Positions 54,935-63,188 of a DNA stretch of 64,000 bases are shown here, piece after piece. The position numbers and the translations under genes are program-made. Positions within the stretch are counted from its first letter, which is position 1. Each line of letters starts with the position of its first letter. The notes beneath the pieces are model-generated. The model saw nothing but the letters and a program-made list of their open reading frames with translations, did no database searches and was not told where the DNA came from. The stretch is from a virus, in the IMG/VR virus record IMGVR_UViG_3300007735_000803, positions 1-64,000 of that record, one strand, 5' to 3'.

Positions 54935-56728
54935 ATGCCCCGAATAGTAGCAATATACCCAGGTCGATTCCAGCCAATGGGTCGACATCATTATAACTCA
55001 TATCTTGATTTAGTCGATCAGTTTGGTAAAAATAACGTATATGTTGTAACTTCCGGTAAAGTTGAACCGGGACGTTCTCCATTAACATTTGCAGAGAAAC
55101 GTAAAGTAGCCGTAGCACACGGTATCCCCTCAAATCGATTTATCCAGGTAAAGAATCCGTATAAAGCAGAAGAATTAACTGCTACATTTCCTGAAGATAC
55201 TTCAGTGGTATTTGCAGTCGGTGATAAGGATATGCGTGAAGATCCTAGATTCCGTACCGGAATGTTGAAATCCGGTAAATCGAGTTATTTTCAACCGTTA
55301 AAGGGAAATGAGAATAATCTTAAAGGTTATCAGGAACATGGGTATCTATATGTACTTCCACACGTTAGTATTGCTATACCAGGATATGGAGAGATGAGTG
55401 GTACTGAGTTGCGTAATGTATTAGCGACTGCTTCTCCTAAGCAATTCAAACAAATAATGGGATGGTATGATTCGGGTATAGCGAATATGTTAGCCGATAA
55501 GTTCTCTGTCCGTGAATCCATAATGGAGGGTGGCGCCGCCGGCCATCTCAATCACCCGTTTGATAAGAACGACTTAACCTTCGGTGATATGAAGGAGATG
55601 ATACGTAGAGCCTTGGCAGGTGAATTGAATATTGAGAAGGATGTAGTTGAAAAGACTGATGGACAGAACCTGCAGATTACATTTAAGGACGGTCAGGTAC
55701 TAGCAGCAAGAAACAAAACACAAATAAAAGATCCAATAAGTGCTGATGATATAAAGATGAAATTTGCAGGACGTGGTTCAATTGAACGTGCTTTTGGATT
55801 TGCAATGGATGATTTAGAATCTGCATTAAATCGTTTGCCGAAAAGGGAATTGGATGAGATATTCCAGAACGGAAAACGGTTCATGAATTTAGAAATCATT
55901 TTTCCTGAAACTAAGAATATTATCAATTATGGTACAGATGCATATTTACAGTTTCACGGATTGGTTGAGTATGATGAAACGGGAAAAGTAGTCGATACCT
56001 ATCCAGAATACGGAAAGAAGTTACAGCGTATGATTGCAAAGGTAAATGCAGACACACAAAAGCAGTTTAAGATAATTCCTCCCAAAGTAGTACAGATAGA
56101 AAAATCCAAATCTTTCGATAAACGTTTACCCTATTACTTAAATAAGATAGACAAGTTACAAAAGGTATATGGATTGACTGATAATGATGAGGTTATTGAG
56201 TGGAGCGATAGATGGTGGGACGATTATATCGATAAAAATTACCCAGATATTTCCCAGGAAAGTAAAGAAGCATTAATTTCCCGTTGGTCACGTGGAGACA
56301 GGTCATTCAGATTAGACAAAAATATTACTTCTGATACAGATGAGTTGAATGATATGAAGCAGGTAGATAAAGAATTTGCAGAAAATCAGATGAAACGTAA
56401 TGTGGGTCAATTTGAAGATATATTTTTAGAGTTGGGTGCTGAGGTATTGAGTAATATATCTGATGTGCTTTCAGCCGTACCTAATGATGCGGTAAAAGAA
56501 ATGCGTAAAGGTATAGCAGATACTATAAAGCAGATACAAGCATCAGGGGATATCGCTATCTTAGATAAATTACGTGACCAATTGAAACGTATCAATAAGT
56601 TAGGTGGTTTAGATAAATTAGTTCCGTTAGAGGGAATAGTATTTACATATAAAGGCGATACATATAAATTGACAGGCGCATTTGCTCCTGCAAATCAAAT
56701 TTTAGGTATGTTAAAGTATATTAGGTAA
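54935..56728 (+). CDS. Nucleotidyltransferase (NMNAT-like) fused to ligase-like domain
   Basis: Encodes 597 aa with two enzymes. Residues 1-185 are a Rossmann nucleotidyltransferase of the NMNAT/cytidylyltransferase class: IYPGRFQPMGRHH (7-19, GxFxPxxxGH-type), VFAVGDKDMR, and MSGTELRN (ISSTxxR-type). After a linker, residues about 205-400 resemble the RNA/DNA ligase nucleotidyltransferase fold: EKTDGQNLQIT with the motif I Lys240 (KxDG), RNKTQIK, NLEIIFPETKN (motif IV-like) and a later FTYKGDTYKLTG. The C-terminus is helical. It may couple NAD synthesis or RNA-end chemistry to ligation; the substrate is unknown. The start is fixed by the ATATTTATAGTATATG leader. Confidence 0.75.
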   Translation: MPRIVAIYPGRFQPMGRHHYNSYLDLVDQFGKNNVYVVTSGKVEPGRSPLTFAEKRKVAVAHGIPSNRFIQVKNPYKAEELTATFPEDTSVVFAVGDKDMREDPRFRTGMLKSGKSSYFQPLKGNENNLKGYQEHGYLYVLPHVSIAIPGYGEMSGTELRNVLATASPKQFKQIMGWYDSGIANMLADKFSVRESIMEGGAAGHLNHPFDKNDLTFGDMKEMIRRALAGELNIEKDVVEKTDGQNLQITFKDGQVLAARNKTQIKDPISADDIKMKFAGRGSIERAFGFAMDDLESALNRLPKRELDEIFQNGKRFMNLEIIFPETKNIINYGTDAYLQFHGLVEYDETGKVVDTYPEYGKKLQRMIAKVNADTQKQFKIIPPKVVQIEKSKSFDKRLPYYLNKIDKLQKVYGLTDNDEVIEWSDRWWDDYIDKNYPDISQESKEALISRWSRGDRSFRLDKNITSDTDELNDMKQVDKEFAENQMKRNVGQFEDIFLELGAEVLSNISDVLSAVPNDAVKEMRKGIADTIKQIQASGDIAILDKLRDQLKRINKLGGLDKLVPLEGIVFTYKGDTYKLTGAFAPANQILGMLKYIR

Positions 56729-57078: not shown

Positions 57079-57726
57079 ATGACAAGGTTACGTAATACTG
57101 AAGCGTTGCGTCAGATGCTAGATGGCACGCATAGAACTCAAACTAAGAAGAGTTTTTTCATGTCCGATACAAAATCGGAAAACGACCCAAACGTAATTTC
57201 TAGAAAAACGGGAGATGTCTGGACTGAAACAGATCCGGTGACCGGTGAAGAAACGCATTGGAAACAAGAAAAGGGATTCAAGCGTAAAATCGGTGTAATG
57301 GAAGCAATACGGCACGAGAGTCCGGAATTGTTTTCAGATATGCAGATGCCAAGCCACTGTCCACACTGTGATAAAAACATGAGTGGGGTTGCAGACACTA
57401 GGATGTGGTCATTGTATAAGATGTGTATTGACTGTGTTGCTAAGCGTGATACGAAACTCATGTATGAAGGCAAATTCGGCGATTTTCAAATGCAAAAGAT
57501 GCAAGAGAATGTTAAGGCCTGGATACGTGATACTGACCAGGAATTTGAAGACATGATTGCTAACATTAAAAAAGATCCTTCATATGTCAATGCAGACGGT
57601 ACACTTGAAAAGTGGGACTTAGGATCTAATGTAGAGGAACAAGAGGCACAACTCCGTGCTGATTATGCAGACTTCAGGAATCGTATATTACAATATTATG
57701 GCATTCAGGAAAATGAAACTGCCTAA
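57079..57726 (+). CDS. Zinc-ribbon hypothetical protein
   Basis: Encodes 215 aa. The middle has CPHC...CIDC (SHCPHCDKNMSG..., MCIDCVAKRD), a four-Cys zinc site with about 20 residues between pairs. The N-terminal half has GDVWTETDPVTGEETHWKQEKGFKRK, and the C-terminal half is helical and acidic. Similar zinc-ribbon proteins lie near gp17 in other T4-like phages. A DNA or protein binding role is inferred. Confidence 0.65.
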   Translation: MTRLRNTEALRQMLDGTHRTQTKKSFFMSDTKSENDPNVISRKTGDVWTETDPVTGEETHWKQEKGFKRKIGVMEAIRHESPELFSDMQMPSHCPHCDKNMSGVADTRMWSLYKMCIDCVAKRDTKLMYEGKFGDFQMQKMQENVKAWIRDTDQEFEDMIANIKKDPSYVNADGTLEKWDLGSNVEEQEAQLRADYADFRNRILQYYGIQENETA

Positions 57727-58143: not shown

Positions 58144-60141
58144 ATGGCTGAGAACAAATCGCTAAAACAAATTATTGCTGAAGAATACATGAAGTGTGCC
58201 GTTAATCCGGTATATTTCATGAAAAAGTATTGTATTATCCAACACCCTACCAAAGGAAAGGTATTCTTCCAGTTATATAACTTCCAAGAGAACACACTAC
58301 AAGAATTAGCAGATAATCGTTACAATGTCATTCTGAAATCAAGGCAAATGGGTATCTCTACCCTAGTTGCTGGATATTCACTTTGGTGCATGTTATTCAA
58401 GAATGATTTCAACGTATTAGTAATCGCCACTACACAAGAGGTAGCAAAAAACTTAGTAACTAAAGTGAGAGTAATGCACGAAAACCTACCTACCTGGTTA
58501 CGTGGTATTACTATTGAAGATAACAAATTATCGCTTAAGTTTAAGAACGGCTCACAAATAAAGGCCGTTTCTAGTGCAGGTCATTCGGGTCGTTCTGAAG
58601 CACTCTCACTTCTTATAATCGATGAGGCTGCCTTTATCACAAAGATTGATGAGATATGGGCAGCAGCACAACAAACATTAGCGACGGGTGGTGGTGCAAT
58701 TGTACTGAGTACACCGAACGGTACTGGTAACTTCTTCCATAGGACATGGGTAGATGCCGAATCCGGCGGACAGTTCCATCCAATACGTTTACATTGGTCA
58801 CTGCATCCGGAAAGGGATGAGAGTTGGCGTCAGCTTCAAACTGAATTATTAGGTGAAAGATTGGCGGCACAGGAGTGTGTTTCCGGCAATAGTTTGGTGA
58901 ATATAGTAAATAATATAACTGGTGACGAGGAAGAAATTACTATAAACGAATTATATGAACGACTTGCAGAAGAGAATAAAAATACCAAATATAGTGTTTT
59001 AACTCCAAACGGTTATCAATTTTTTACCGGCATCCGCCGAGTACAGAAATCCGACAGGTTGCGTATTTTACTTGAAGGCGGAATAGACTTAGAATGCTCC
59101 AAAAATCATAGATTTATTATCGAAGGTTCTGAGGTATATGCAGATACTTTACATGTAGGAGATGCAATTGAATCAACGCATGGTAAGTTGTGCATATTGG
59201 AAATTGAAACAATAACGGAACCGATCGACTTATTTGATTTGGTTGATGTTGCTAATGGCAATGTATATTTTACTAACGGGTTATTAAGTCACAACTGCGA
59301 CACCGACTTCATTTCATCCGGACACACCGTAGTTGCAGGTGAATTGATAGAATGGTATCGAGAAACCTATACACAGGAACCTATAGAAAAACGTGGAATG
59401 GGTGGTGAATTGTGGCTATGGGAGTACCCGGATTATACAAAAGATTATATAGTAGCGGCCGACGTTGCCCGCGGTGATGGCGGGGACTATTCAGCATTCC
59501 ATATTATTGAATTAAAGAGTTTACGACAGGTAGCTGAATTTAGAGGAAAGATAGGAACGACTGAATACGGTCACATGTTAGTATCAATGGCTACGGAATA
59601 TAACAATGCAATATTGGCGATTGAAAATGCTAATATTGGTTGGGCAGTTATACAGGTAGCAATAGATAAAGGATACCCAAATCTTTATTACAGCTACCGA
59701 CAGGATGGTTATTTGGATGAGAATATTCATTTGTCTAAAGGATATGATCTTAAAGATAAGAGTGCAATGGTTCCTGGCTTCACTACCTCATCCAAGACCA
59801 GACCACTAATGATTGCGAAATTAGAAACCTATTTCCGTGAAAAGGCACCAATCATACATAGTAAACGGTTAATTGATGAATTGCTAGTATTTATTTGGAT
59901 TGGTAACCGAGCAGAAGCGCAGCATGGCTATAATGATGACTTAATTATGTCATTATGTATTGCATTGTGGATACGTGATACTGCATTAAAATTGAAACAA
60001 CAGGGTTTAGATCTAACATTAAAGGCTGTAACACATATAGGAAAGCATTCCGGTATATATACAGTCAATGATCCAAGTAATTCTCCCTGGACAAGTAAAC
60101 TACCAGATGGTTCTTCTGAATCATTAAAATGGTTATTGTAA
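58144..60141 (+). CDS. terL: Terminase large subunit (gp17-like) with mini-intein
   Basis: Encodes 665 aa; after intein removal 525 aa, the usual TerL size. ATPase motifs: SRQMGIST (66-73, a Walker A variant without the usual Lys), IIDE (158-161) and STPNGTGN. After the intein the RNase H-like nuclease begins with VAADVARGDGGDYSAF (Asp440) and ends GYNDDLIMSLCIALWI. Residues 245-384 are an inserted intein. It packages DNA through the portal. The gene is followed by the portal gene, in the T4 order 17-20 with small genes between missing. Confidence 0.93.
   Translation: MAENKSLKQIIAEEYMKCAVNPVYFMKKYCIIQHPTKGKVFFQLYNFQENTLQELADNRYNVILKSRQMGISTLVAGYSLWCMLFKNDFNVLVIATTQEVAKNLVTKVRVMHENLPTWLRGITIEDNKLSLKFKNGSQIKAVSSAGHSGRSEALSLLIIDEAAFITKIDEIWAAAQQTLATGGGAIVLSTPNGTGNFFHRTWVDAESGGQFHPIRLHWSLHPERDESWRQLQTELLGERLAAQECVSGNSLVNIVNNITGDEEEITINELYERLAEENKNTKYSVLTPNGYQFFTGIRRVQKSDRLRILLEGGIDLECSKNHRFIIEGSEVYADTLHVGDAIESTHGKLCILEIETITEPIDLFDLVDVANGNVYFTNGLLSHNCDTDFISSGHTVVAGELIEWYRETYTQEPIEKRGMGGELWLWEYPDYTKDYIVAADVARGDGGDYSAFHIIELKSLRQVAEFRGKIGTTEYGHMLVSMATEYNNAILAIENANIGWAVIQVAIDKGYPNLYYSYRQDGYLDENIHLSKGYDLKDKSAMVPGFTTSSKTRPLMIAKLETYFREKAPIIHSKRLIDELLVFIWIGNRAEAQHGYNDDLIMSLCIALWIRDTALKLKQQGLDLTLKAVTHIGKHSGIYTVNDPSNSPWTSKLPDGSSESLKWLL
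58876..59295 (+). mobile_element. Mini-intein in terminase large subunit
   Basis: 140 aa, residues 245-384 of the precursor. It begins CVSGNSLVNI (block A, Cys1), has SKNHRFI (block B-type His), and ends VYFTNGLLSHN followed by Cys (+1) in HNCDTDF. No homing endonuclease domain is present, so it can splice but not home by itself. Joining the flanks gives LAAQE-CDTDF, which restores a continuous TerL reading. Confidence 0.9.
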
Positions 60142-60161: not shown

Positions 60162-63100
60162 ATGATAGATACATCAATACGTGCTAGGTTAAGGCGTTTA
60201 TTCAGTACTCAAGTTATAGTACGGAAGGTAGGCGCCAATAAGATTAAAGTAACTGATACGAGTAAACTCCAAGCGGGAGGTAACCCATATGGAAGTACAT
60301 ACGTAGATCGTTTTGCTGGTCTGCATACAAATCGTACTATGGGAGTTACTGGTATTGGTAACGCTTACAGTTTCCATGCGGTAAAGACTCAATTGTATAC
60401 TGATTATGAAGCAATGGACTTAGATCCGATCATTTCATCTGCGCTTGATATTTATGCAGATGAATCTACTACATATTCAGAAAACAATATTGTATTAGAG
60501 ATTAAGACTGAGGATGCACGTATTCAAAAGATACTTCATAACTTATTTTATGATGTATTGAATGTCGAGTATAATTTATGGCCGTGGGTTCGTAATATGT
60601 GTAAATACGGAGATTTTTATCTGTATTTAGATATTAATGAAGAATTGGGTGTTGTTAACGTAATGCCCATATCAGCCTATGAATTAGAAAGACAAGAGGG
60701 ATACGATCCTGAAAATCCGTACAGTGTACGTTTCACATTTATCGGTAAAAACTCTGTGTATAGTTCCAATGAAAAGAATACACATTTTGAATATTATGAA
60801 ATAGCACACTTTAGAATGCTATCCGATACGAATTTCTTACCGTACGGAAAATCAATGATCGAAGGTGCTCGTAAATTATTTAAGCAGTTAGTACTGATGG
60901 AAGATGCGATGTTACTGCAACGTATTATGCGTGCGCCGGAACGTCGTATATTTAAGATAGATGTAGGTAATATCCCACCGATTGAGGTAGATTCTCATAT
61001 CCAGAATATTATTACTAAGGTAAAGAAAGTTCCATATATGGATCCGCAAACCGGGGAGTATAATTTGAAATTCAACATGCAAAACATGTTAGAGGATTTC
61101 TATTTACCTGTACGAGGATCGGAAAGTGGTACTTCAATTGAAACGTTGCCTGGATTATCAAGCGACGGTCAGATAGAGGATATAGAATATTTAAGGAACA
61201 AGATGATGGCTGCGCTGAAGATACCCAAAGCATTCTTAGGGTATGATGAGGGCATCCAAGGTAAATGTATCAGTCCGCTAACTATGATTCCGTTGATTGA
61301 CGGGAGAGTATTAACCGTTTCGGATTTAATTGATGAATTTAATGCGGGTAAACAAAATTATGTATATTCATTAGATACAGATACAAATAGTATCGTGCCC
61401 GGCGAAATTGAGTGGGCAGGTTATACTAGGTTAAATACTCAGATAGTACGCGTTAATTTGGATAACGGGAAATATATCGAATGTACGCCAGACCATAAGT
61501 TTTTAACTAGAAACGGTGAATGGATAGAGGCTCAAGATTTGAATACTGGTCAAGCTCTAATGCCGTTGTATTTAGGAAATGGTGGATACAAAAAACACTA
61601 TACTACAGTATATAATCCAAGCACCGAGAAGTATACTTTAGTACATAGATTGGTTGCTGATCACTATAATATTAAAGAAGACGGTAAAGTTATACACCAT
61701 AAAGATTATAATTCTAGGAATAACAATCCAGATAATTTAGATGGATCAATGACATTTTTCGAACATAGAGAATTTCATCAGAAAAATGCACATGAGTGGA
61801 ACAAATCACCTGCTATGGTCCAATATAGAAATTCACCGCAGTTTTTAATTAATTCTAGTAACGGGGGTAAGAAGGGTGGTGCTAAATCTGCCAAGCAGTT
61901 AGGTGAATATGCTAGAACCCACGCACCTGTAAATAAGTTGCCTAGGTATGATTATACTTGTGAGATATGTGGATGTAAACTTGTTGGTAGGTTAGGTGTA
62001 CCTAACAATAAAACATGCGCGGCTGGAGGATGTATTTCTGCTATAGCAAGAAATAGAAAGATAGGAAATACATATAACTGCAAATTTAACAAAGTCCCGT
62101 ATGATATTTTATTGGAGACTGCTAAAGTATCGAATTCGTTTAAAGACTTAGAATCTAAATTAGGAATTACTAGAGCTACGTTAAATCGTGTATTCGAATT
62201 ATATGATATCAACAAAGAAGATTTTGTTTTTGCACACATGCCTCTAGCGTTATCCAATAAAGGATTTATGCAAAATTATAGGCAATACGAGTCACACTAT
62301 GCCAATCATACGGTGCTGAATGTTGAATGGTTGTCTGAGAATATAGATACCTGCGATTTAACGATTAATAGATATCATAATTTTGGTACGGATGCTGGCG
62401 TGATTATACATAATAGTACTCTGGCCGCTGAAGATGTTCGTTTTGCTAGGACCATTGAACGTATCCAACGAATAGTAATTAGTGAGTTATATAAGATTGC
62501 CGTTGTTCACTTATATACACAGGGATTTGAAGATGCCGATTTAGTTAACTTCGAATTGAATTTAACCTCTCCCTCAATCATATATGAGCGTCAGAAGGTC
62601 GAATTAATGAAGGAAAAGATTGATTTGGCAAATACGTTAATTGAAAGTAAGTTATTCAGCCGTAAATTTATCTATGAAAACATTTTTGATATGGATCAAA
62701 ACGGTTGGCAAAATGAACAGGAATTAGTGGTAGAAGATACCAAGCAAGAATTCCGTTTAGAGCAGATAAAGAGTGAAGGAAATGATCCGAAATTGACTAA
62801 ACAGAGCTATGGTACTCCTCATGATATTGCATCAATGCACGTATCAAGTAAGTATGAAGATCCTAGATTACGTGAATATGTTCCCGGGCCCGGACGCCCT
62901 AAAGCTAAAACGAATTTTGAGAGTGATCGCGATGTAGATGGGCCGGATCCGCTCGGAATGAAAGATGTATCAGATACATTTAAAGTTGATACTGGTATGT
63001 CTAAAACTCCTAAAACTAGCAGTGCATTCGGTGAAAATACGAAATATATCGGTTCTATATTACATTCAATGAAACAAAATAAATTAGCAAAATCAACGAG

Positions 63101-63188
63101 CGTTGCTCAAACATTAAACGAACATGTCGAACCTAGTGATACGGGGACACTTTTAGATGAAAGTAGATTGGATTCTTTTAATGTTTAA
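60162..63188 (+). CDS. Portal protein (gp20-like) with HNH intein
   Basis: Encodes 1008 aa; after intein removal 625 aa. N-terminal AVKTQLYTDYEAMDLDPIISSALDIYADESTTYSENN, middle KLFKQLVLMEDAMLLQRIMRAPERRIFKIDVGN and GTSIETLPGLSSDGQIEDIEYLRNKMMAALKIPKAFLGYDEG are diagnostic for T4-type portal proteins. Residues 369-751 are an intein. The portal forms the dodecameric DNA channel at the head vertex. The C-terminal tail is Lys/Asp-rich and disordered. Confidence 0.93.
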   Translation: MIDTSIRARLRRLFSTQVIVRKVGANKIKVTDTSKLQAGGNPYGSTYVDRFAGLHTNRTMGVTGIGNAYSFHAVKTQLYTDYEAMDLDPIISSALDIYADESTTYSENNIVLEIKTEDARIQKILHNLFYDVLNVEYNLWPWVRNMCKYGDFYLYLDINEELGVVNVMPISAYELERQEGYDPENPYSVRFTFIGKNSVYSSNEKNTHFEYYEIAHFRMLSDTNFLPYGKSMIEGARKLFKQLVLMEDAMLLQRIMRAPERRIFKIDVGNIPPIEVDSHIQNIITKVKKVPYMDPQTGEYNLKFNMQNMLEDFYLPVRGSESGTSIETLPGLSSDGQIEDIEYLRNKMMAALKIPKAFLGYDEGIQGKCISPLTMIPLIDGRVLTVSDLIDEFNAGKQNYVYSLDTDTNSIVPGEIEWAGYTRLNTQIVRVNLDNGKYIECTPDHKFLTRNGEWIEAQDLNTGQALMPLYLGNGGYKKHYTTVYNPSTEKYTLVHRLVADHYNIKEDGKVIHHKDYNSRNNNPDNLDGSMTFFEHREFHQKNAHEWNKSPAMVQYRNSPQFLINSSNGGKKGGAKSAKQLGEYARTHAPVNKLPRYDYTCEICGCKLVGRLGVPNNKTCAAGGCISAIARNRKIGNTYNCKFNKVPYDILLETAKVSNSFKDLESKLGITRATLNRVFELYDINKEDFVFAHMPLALSNKGFMQNYRQYESHYANHTVLNVEWLSENIDTCDLTINRYHNFGTDAGVIIHNSTLAAEDVRFARTIERIQRIVISELYKIAVVHLYTQGFEDADLVNFELNLTSPSIIYERQKVELMKEKIDLANTLIESKLFSRKFIYENIFDMDQNGWQNEQELVVEDTKQEFRLEQIKSEGNDPKLTKQSYGTPHDIASMHVSSKYEDPRLREYVPGPGRPKAKTNFESDRDVDGPDPLGMKDVSDTFKVDTGMSKTPKTSSAFGENTKYIGSILHSMKQNKLAKSTSVAQTLNEHVEPSDTGTLLDESRLDSFNV
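61266..62414 (+). mobile_element. Intein with HNH homing endonuclease in portal gene
   Basis: 383 aa, residues 369-751. It starts CISPLTMIPLIDGRVLTV (Cys1), has ECTPDHKFLTRNGEWIEA (block B TPDH), and ends NFGTDAGVIIHN followed by Ser (+1) in STLAAEDVRF. Inside is an HNH nuclease (VIHHKDYNSRNNNPDNLD, with HREFH downstream) and a zinc-finger-like stretch (CEICGC...CAAGGC). Removing it restores GYDEGIQGK-STLAAEDVRFARTI of the portal. Confidence 0.92.

What the first reader, a model, noticed from the sequence alone, without database searches (positions are those of the whole stretch)
54935..56728. NMNAT-like domain fused to a KxDG ligase-like domain
One ORF joins a class I nucleotidyltransferase (GRFQPMGRHH, MSGTELR) to a domain with an RNA/DNA-ligase adenylation motif (KTDG, Lys240). 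Such a fusion could link NAD or CDP/AMP transfer chemistry with nucleic-acid ligation or capping, perhaps as a counter-defence against NAD depletion or tRNA cleavage. The specific substrate is unknown.
Basis: partly seen in the sequence, partly recalled or inferred. Interest (0 to 1): 0.65.

Follow-up and report, generated by a model that had tools for sequence, protein, structure and literature searches.

The report
Phage-packaged NAD-enzyme and RNA-ligase fusion
A large, unnamed family of aquatic T4-like phages encodes an NAD-making-type enzyme joined to an RNA-ligase-type enzyme, and the sequences suggest that both are loaded into the phage head, cut apart by the phage's maturation protease and injected into the host, probably to undo damage done by early bacterial defences.

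Summary
Window 54935-56728 (+) is one 597-aa ORF with an NMNAT-type HIGH nucleotidyltransferase (residues 1-190) followed by a covalent RNA-ligase-type nucleotidyltransferase (199-597; K240, R259, E320, E566, K578). AlphaFold2 (mean pLDDT 93) and Foldseek give both folds, and the ligase motifs are invariant in relatives.

It belongs to a virus-only family: at least 570 IMG/VR stretches, 3 of 50,697 phage records, 9 MAG contigs, no Pfam or PHROG model. Of 149 ligase ORFs with enough flank, 146 carry an NMNAT domain in the same protein (118) or a nearby ORF (28), through several rearrangements.

New here: the ligase domain is preceded by [LI]xE|GG, the T4 gp21 prohead-protease consensus, in 54 of 58 non-redundant sequences (background about 0.6% per position). 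It lies in the model's only disordered stretch. Many relatives have T4-like capsid-targeting N-termini. A homologous NMNAT was found by published mass spectrometry in cyanophage S-CREM2 virions. Some relatives also fuse CCA tRNA nucleotidyltransferase or a P-loop kinase.

Best reading: a head-packaged, protease-processed, injected RNA-repair plus NAD module. Folds are well supported, packaging is strongly inferred (though the window copy lacks the N-terminal targeting peptide), and substrates are inferred.

The parts
54935..56728 (+). 597-aa ORF: NMNAT-like nucleotidyltransferase fused to RNA-ligase-like covalent nucleotidyltransferase
   Evidence: AF2 mean pLDDT 93
54935..55504 (+). NMNAT-type (HIGH superfamily) domain, residues 1-190
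   Evidence: family profile vs PDB 1f9a E 2.3e-9; Foldseek 2qjt, 3pxu
54962..54991 (+). GRFQPMGRHH, nucleotide-binding motif in the GxHH variant (His19 invariant in the family)
55394..55414 (+). MSGTELR, second NMNAT motif (Ser155 and Arg160 invariant)
55505..55528 (+). SVRE-SIME linker: predicted prohead-protease site(s); scissile bond after Glu198 (IME|GG), possible second site VRE|S
   Evidence: [LI]xE|GG in 54/58 non-redundant relatives; residues 195-197 are the only segment below pLDDT 50
55529..56725 (+). RNA-ligase-like domain, residues 199-597
   Evidence: invariant motifs; Foldseek to archaeal RNA ligase, T4 Rnl1, T4 Rnl2
55652..55663 (+). motif I KTDG, predicted adenylated Lys240
   Evidence: invariant in 52 relatives
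55706..55717 (+). ARNK, motif Ia-like (Arg259)
   Evidence: R invariant
55886..55903 (+). NLEIIF, motif III (Glu320)
   Evidence: E invariant
56114..56599 (+). all-helical insert between motifs III and IV (residues 394-555)
   Evidence: DSSP of the AF2 models
56630..56644 (+). EGIVF, motif IV (Glu566)
   Evidence: EG invariant
56663..56677 (+). YKLTG, motif V (Lys578)
   Evidence: K invariant
57079..57726 (+). conserved unknown gene between the fusion gene and terminase; homologue in 84 of 95 related loci
   Evidence: no PHROG
58144..60141 (+). terminase large subunit (with intein-like insert), downstream of the fusion gene in 77 of 95 loci: head-module context

Best explanation
The gene encodes a two-enzyme precursor: an NMNAT-type adenylyltransferase and an ATP-dependent RNA-ligase-type enzyme. 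In the phage family the precursor, or its pieces when encoded apart, is built into the prohead core, cut after Glu in [L/I]xE sites by the gp21-type prohead protease (here after Glu198), kept in the mature head and ejected with the DNA. In the new host the ligase would adenylate itself on Lys240 and reseal broken RNA, most likely tRNA cut by host defence nucleases. The NMNAT domain would remake NAD(+)-type dinucleotides from NMN and ATP. Both would act before any phage gene is expressed. Shown here: folds, intact catalytic motifs, obligate pairing, position, protease-site-like boundaries. Inferred: packaging and cleavage (about 0.75 for the family, about 0.6 for this copy), RNA/tRNA as ligase substrate (about 0.55), NMN as NMNAT substrate (about 0.6).
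For: Both folds: AF2 and Foldseek, NMNAT profile match, invariant ligase residues. Pairing: 118 fused plus 28 neighbouring ORFs out of 149 assessable, mirror-tree r 0.58 against a permuted maximum of 0.10. Processing: [LI]xE|GG in 54/58 and 96/107. The site is in the only disordered segment. A natural stand-alone copy starts exactly at Met-GG (L107), so the LxE is not needed for the fold. [LI]xE is depleted inside the ligase (0.59 of expected) and NMNAT (0.74) domains but not in TerL, portal or a neighbour. N-terminal extensions before the NMNAT hold an LxE in 23/26, and T4-like peptides such as MKLFTYQEFLNE precede solo ligases. The phage has a gp21-type protease and a gp23-type capsid protein whose propeptide boundary (QLVTE|A; QLISE|A in Mel-JY01) fits. 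T4 gp21 cuts after L/I-x-E and 10 CTS residues suffice for packaging (PMC9026906). Homologous NMNAT S-CREM2 gp154 (profile E 3.4e-6) starts MKNFSSFLTE|A and was found in virions by mass spectrometry (PMC10665884). RNA-repair domains are fused in relatives: CCA tRNA nucleotidyltransferase, P-loop kinase, Nudix.
Against: The window protein has no N-terminal targeting peptide: an in-frame stop lies just upstream and it starts directly at MPRIVAIYPGRF. The GGFKP-type relatives mostly lack one too. No virion of this exact family has been analysed. [LI]xE is short and gp21-like proteases are permissive. About 7% of boundaries have Met, Cys or another residue instead of Glu. Ligase hits are weak by sequence (Pfam RNA_ligase best E 0.015, PHROG RNA ligase 9e-4) and Foldseek TM-scores are low. 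The window NMNAT motif is GxHH, so its activity is not certain. Fused repair domains are present in only a few relatives.
Confidence: 0.5

Rival explanations
1. An ordinary intracellular auxiliary enzyme: a two-domain RNA-repair/NAD-salvage protein made during infection, not packaged. The LxE before GG is merely a conserved N-terminal feature of the ligase domain.
For: The window copy has no N-terminal CTS. T4-like phages carry intracellular RNA ligases and NAD salvage enzymes (PMC7824862).
Against: The gene lies in the head/packaging module in 77 of 95 loci. The boundary motif is in a disordered stretch, is dispensable in L107 and recurs at other domain boundaries and at N-termini. A homologous NMNAT is virion-borne.
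Confidence: 0.22
2. The pair forms one NAD-coupled ligase: the ligase domain takes AMP from NAD+ and releases NMN, which the fused NMNAT turns back into NAD+ with ATP.
For: Nearly obligate pairing despite changed domain order. LigA-type ligases do use NAD+ (established knowledge; PMC9503650).
Against: No domain similar to the NAD-binding Ia domain of LigA was detected. Foldseek hits are ATP-dependent RNA ligases. Predicted cleavage would separate the two domains.
Confidence: 0.1
3. The ligase-like domain is a nick-sealing DNA ligase that repairs the incoming phage genome, with NMNAT as a side activity.
For: No Pfam DNA_ligase_A_M or RNA_ligase match was found in the 157-kb record. An injected ligase would meet the phage DNA first.
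Against: The closest folds are RNA ligases (T4 Rnl1, Rnl2, archaeal Rnl). No OB-fold or motif VI: the chain ends about 20 residues after motif V. tRNA-processing domains are fused in relatives. The record may be incomplete, and NAD-dependent ligase was not searched.
Confidence: 0.13
4. One or both domains are catalytically dead structural or scaffold components of the head.
For: Head-module position. The first His of HxGH is missing in the window NMNAT. A degenerate ligase-like domain exists in another clade.
Against: Catalytic residues of the ligase are invariant over 52 diverse sequences, and His19, Ser155 and Arg160 of the NMNAT are invariant.
Confidence: 0.1

Closest known systems
ATP-dependent RNA ligases (T4 Rnl1/Rnl2, archaeal Rnl of Palaeococcus/Pyrococcus; Pfam PF09414)
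   Same: Same fold by Foldseek (8uci, 2vug, 2c5u, 2hvr) and motifs I, III, IV, V present and invariant
   Different: Sequence below family thresholds; all-helical insert between motifs III and IV; no C-terminal domain after motif V; fused to NMNAT; LxE|GG N-terminus
NMN adenylyltransferase (M. jannaschii MJ0541 1f9a; NadM-Nudix 2qjt; phage NadM/NatV)
   Same: Fold, nucleotide-binding and SGTxxR motifs; best profile and fold hits
   Different: GxHH in place of HxGH in the window clade; fused to ligase instead of Nudix
T4 internal proteins and Alt: head-packaged, gp21-processed, ejected proteins
   Same: CTS-like N-termini with LxE sites in relatives, gp21-type protease, head gene module
   Different: Cargo is an NMNAT and an RNA ligase; cut site lies between two enzyme domains; window copy lacks the N-terminal CTS
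Polyvalent proteins (Iyer et al. 2017, PMC5512222)
   Same: Multi-enzyme injected proteins near late genes; relatives also hold metallopeptidase and ParB-like domains
   Different: A text search of that paper found no NMN/cytidylyl term and no ligase-NMNAT combination in the passages shown
Virion-associated NMNAT/cytidylyltransferase of cyanomyoviruses (S-CREM2 gp154, S-SCSM1 ORF91)
   Same: S-CREM2 gp154 has a homologous NMNAT domain with CTS-like start and LTE|A site; both were detected in virions
   Different: No ligase domain found in the S-CREM2 region examined

Membership tests
Covalent nucleotidyltransferase / RNA ligase superfamily | Motif I KxDG with nucleophilic Lys, motif III Glu, motif IV EG, motif V Lys | tested here: met
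   Invariant in 52 sequences; window K240, E320, E566, K578
Covalent nucleotidyltransferase / RNA ligase superfamily | Ligase catalytic fold | tested here: met
   AF2 pLDDT 90.7; the top 26 Foldseek hits are ligases, E 5e-3 to 0.23, probabilities up to 0.97; weak but consistent
Pfam RNA_ligase PF09414 | Score above curated cut-off | tested here: not met
   Best E 0.015 in 8 of 52 members; window itself no match
RNA ligase (activity) | ATP-dependent enzyme-AMP formation and RNA sealing | not testable with these tools
   Needs purified protein
HIGH-superfamily NMN adenylyltransferase | NMNAT fold and (H/T)xGH plus SxTxxR motifs | tested here: inconclusive
   Fold and second motif met; first motif is GxHH in the window, HxGH or TxGH in other members
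HIGH-superfamily NMN adenylyltransferase | NMN as substrate | not testable with these tools
   Inferred from closest relatives only
T4-type head-packaged internal protein | N-terminal capsid targeting sequence ending in (L/I)xE | tested here: not met
   Absent in the window copy; present in 23/26 relatives with an N-terminal extension before the NMNAT
T4-type head-packaged internal protein | (L/I)xE prohead-protease sites at mature boundaries | tested here: met
   IME|GG in the window; 54/58 in the family
T4-type head-packaged internal protein | Presence in virions | not testable with these tools
   Only a homologous cyanophage NMNAT has been shown in virions (PMC10665884)
Polyvalent proteins | Two or more unrelated enzyme domains in one late/head-module protein | tested here: met

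The most novel reading that the evidence does not exclude
NMNAT and ligase act in one pathway, not as two separate repair tools: for example an NAD-coupled ligase whose NMN product is recycled by the NMNAT, or a virion-delivered system that makes or repairs nucleotide-linked 5' RNA ends. The near-obligate pairing through fusion, permutation and splitting fits this, and it is not explained by two independent defences.
Probability: 0.15. Interest if true: 0.85.

Novelty: new variant of a known kind. Interest (0 to 1): 0.62.

Why it matters
RNA repair and NAD rebuilding by phages are usually thought of as enzymes made after infection starts, when host NADases and anticodon nucleases may already have acted. 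A virion-borne, protease-released NMNAT plus RNA ligase would act at time zero. It would explain why NMNAT-like proteins keep turning up in cyanophage virions. It also gives an abundant, unnamed aquatic phage family a concrete function that can be tested with one isolate.

Tried and rejected
Single-sequence searches of the window protein gave nothing useful (Pfam best 0.15, PHROG cytidyltransferase 0.049, PDB none), so family profiles were needed. PF01467 found nothing in the own record because this copy is divergent. A hit to phage P1 DarA in the helical region (E 0.03-0.2) was judged coiled-coil chance. Capping enzyme: no capping fold among the best structural hits. NAD salvage partner: no NAPRTase-family match (PF04095) in the 157-kb record, which may be incomplete. 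Cellular origin: only 9 contigs, read as viral contamination or prophage. The single-sequence scan of viral contigs with L106 found no relatives. The literature searches found no paper describing the fusion. The tandem LxE signal alone is modest (26 observed against 17 expected) and is not relied on.

Full report
The finding. Window 54935-56728 (+) is a complete 597-aa ORF. Alone, the sequence matches no family with confidence, so the case rests on relatives.

Family size and distribution. Only three of 50,697 phage records hold it: Microcystis phage Mel-JY01, where it is annotated 'cytidylyltransferase like protein', and two unannotated metagenomic jumbo phages. In 84,980 prokaryote species genomes only nine contigs match, nearly all labelled MAG. 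The family is therefore essentially viral. It has no Pfam or PHROG model; the best weak hits are to RNA ligases (Pfam RNA_ligase E 0.015; PHROG RNA ligases 9e-4).

Folds. The full-length AlphaFold2 model has mean pLDDT 93, and the only segment below 50 is residues 195-197. Foldseek against the PDB returns NMNAT/PPAT structures (2qjt E 2.3e-4; 3pxu TM 0.65 by target) and ATP-dependent RNA ligases (Palaeococcus, T4 Rnl1, archaeal homodimeric ligase; probabilities 0.85-0.97). The ligase domain alone gives ligases as its first 26 hits, with modest E-values (from 5e-3) and low TM-scores. The profile of 43 NMNAT domains matches M. jannaschii NMNAT at 2.3e-9, and single relatives pass PF01467 above its cut-off. 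In 52 ligase domains the motif I Lys, Asp and Gly, the motif Ia Arg, the motif III Glu, the motif IV Glu-Gly and the motif V Lys are invariant. An all-helical stretch of about 160 residues sits between motifs III and IV, and the chain ends about 20 residues after motif V.

Pairing. Of 184 ligase ORFs (partly redundant between scans), 35 are truncated or lack flank. Of the other 149, 118 are fused to an NMNAT domain (110 NMNAT first, 8 ligase first), 28 have an NMNAT ORF close by, and 3 have none in the locus. In the ligase tree the ligase-first clade and nearly all split cases form single clades, and NMNAT and ligase trees correlate (r 0.58; permuted maximum 0.10). The two activities have therefore been kept together through changes of architecture, which points to a shared task.

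Position. A terminase large subunit follows in 77 of 95 loci and a conserved unknown gene lies between them in 84. In the own record a gp21-type protease (PHROG head maturation protease, E 8e-53), an acidic scaffold-like protein and a gp23-type capsid protein (E 1e-73) follow. The gene is part of the head module.

Protease-site signature. The residues just before the conserved GGxxGH start of the ligase domain are [LI]xE in 54 of 58 non-redundant sequences; elsewhere in the same proteins [LI]xE occurs at 0.5-0.6% of positions. In the larger set it is 96 of 107. T4 gp21 cuts after L/I-x-E and the first ten residues of IPIII suffice for packaging (PMC9026906). The site lies in the disordered stretch, and one stand-alone member (L107) simply begins Met-Gly-Gly at this place, so the motif is not a fold requirement. 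Inside the ligase and NMNAT domains [LI]xE is depleted (0.59 and 0.74 of shuffled expectation) while terminase, portal and a neighbour show no depletion; sequences are related, so these ratios are indicative only. Of 26 distinct N-terminal extensions before the NMNAT, 23 hold [LI]xE (shuffled expectation 12.8), and solo ligases begin with peptides such as MKLFTYQEFLNE or MLLTYEQFLVE. Capsid-protein propeptide boundaries in the same phages fit the rule (QLISE|A in Mel-JY01, QLVTE|A in the window phage).

Independent support for packaging. S-CREM2 gp154, called cytidylyltransferase, was detected in virions by mass spectrometry, and NMNAT-like proteins are reported from virions of three other cyanomyoviruses (PMC10665884, PMC9602691). 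It matches the NMNAT profile here (E 3.4e-6) and begins MKNFSSFLTE|A; a second cyanophage homologue (E 1.1e-16) begins MAMRSFLTFLTE|A.

Function. Extra domains in relatives include CCA tRNA nucleotidyltransferase (best E 6.9e-54), a P-loop kinase (AAA_33, 7.7e-10), Nudix (2.3e-15), metallopeptidase and ParB-like domains. Together with a ligase this favours RNA, probably tRNA, repair, in the style of injected polyvalent proteins (PMC5512222). The NMNAT part most resembles NadM-type enzymes, so remaking NAD is the simplest reading, but substrates are untested.

Caveats. The window copy lacks an N-terminal targeting peptide, so how it would enter the prohead is open. Its NMNAT motif is GxHH. No member has been assayed. 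Confidence is high for folds and pairing, moderate for packaging and cleavage, and lower for substrates.

Noticed in passing
window 58144-60141 and 60162-63188: Both the terminase and the portal ORF carry intein-like insertions (Cys start, HN-C or HN-S end); judged from the translation only.
   Followed up: no
L160:6260-7525, L015:6253-7671, L118:6289-7539 and relatives: In the clade where ligase and NMNAT are separate ORFs, the NMNAT ORF carries a second, degenerate ligase-like N-terminal domain (SEKxxASSF or SEQMDGSRF; EGIVF in L160), followed by [LI]NE|AL before the NMNAT: a possible pseudo-ligase.
   Followed up: partly
L111, L101, L092: CCA tRNA nucleotidyltransferase-type domains (PolyA_pol head, RNA-binding and/or HD) fused in one polypeptide with NMNAT and ligase.
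   Followed up: partly
L155:1854-6263, L142:3-4352: P-loop kinase (AAA_33/zeta-toxin type) fused ahead of NMNAT and ligase; L155 begins with a CTS-like peptide MDKLTEFLVKPFLTE.
   Followed up: partly
window 57079-57726: Unknown gene conserved between the fusion gene and terminase in 84 of 95 loci, without a PHROG; a candidate small terminase or head factor.
   Followed up: no
family-wide: Three NMNAT motif classes (HxGH or TxGH, GxHH, GGFKPxTGAH) follow the ligase tree fairly closely; the GxHH swap recurs and may mark a changed substrate.
   Followed up: partly
L096:6570-8084 (record 70570-72084): 504-aa ORF just after the capsid gene that looks like a homing endonuclease; judged by eye.
   Followed up: no
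L108:15001-15621 (Prevotella phage Lak-B5): Lak megaphages encode an NMNAT-like domain of this family, but no ligase domain was found within 15 kb (read with TAG as Gln).
   Followed up: partly
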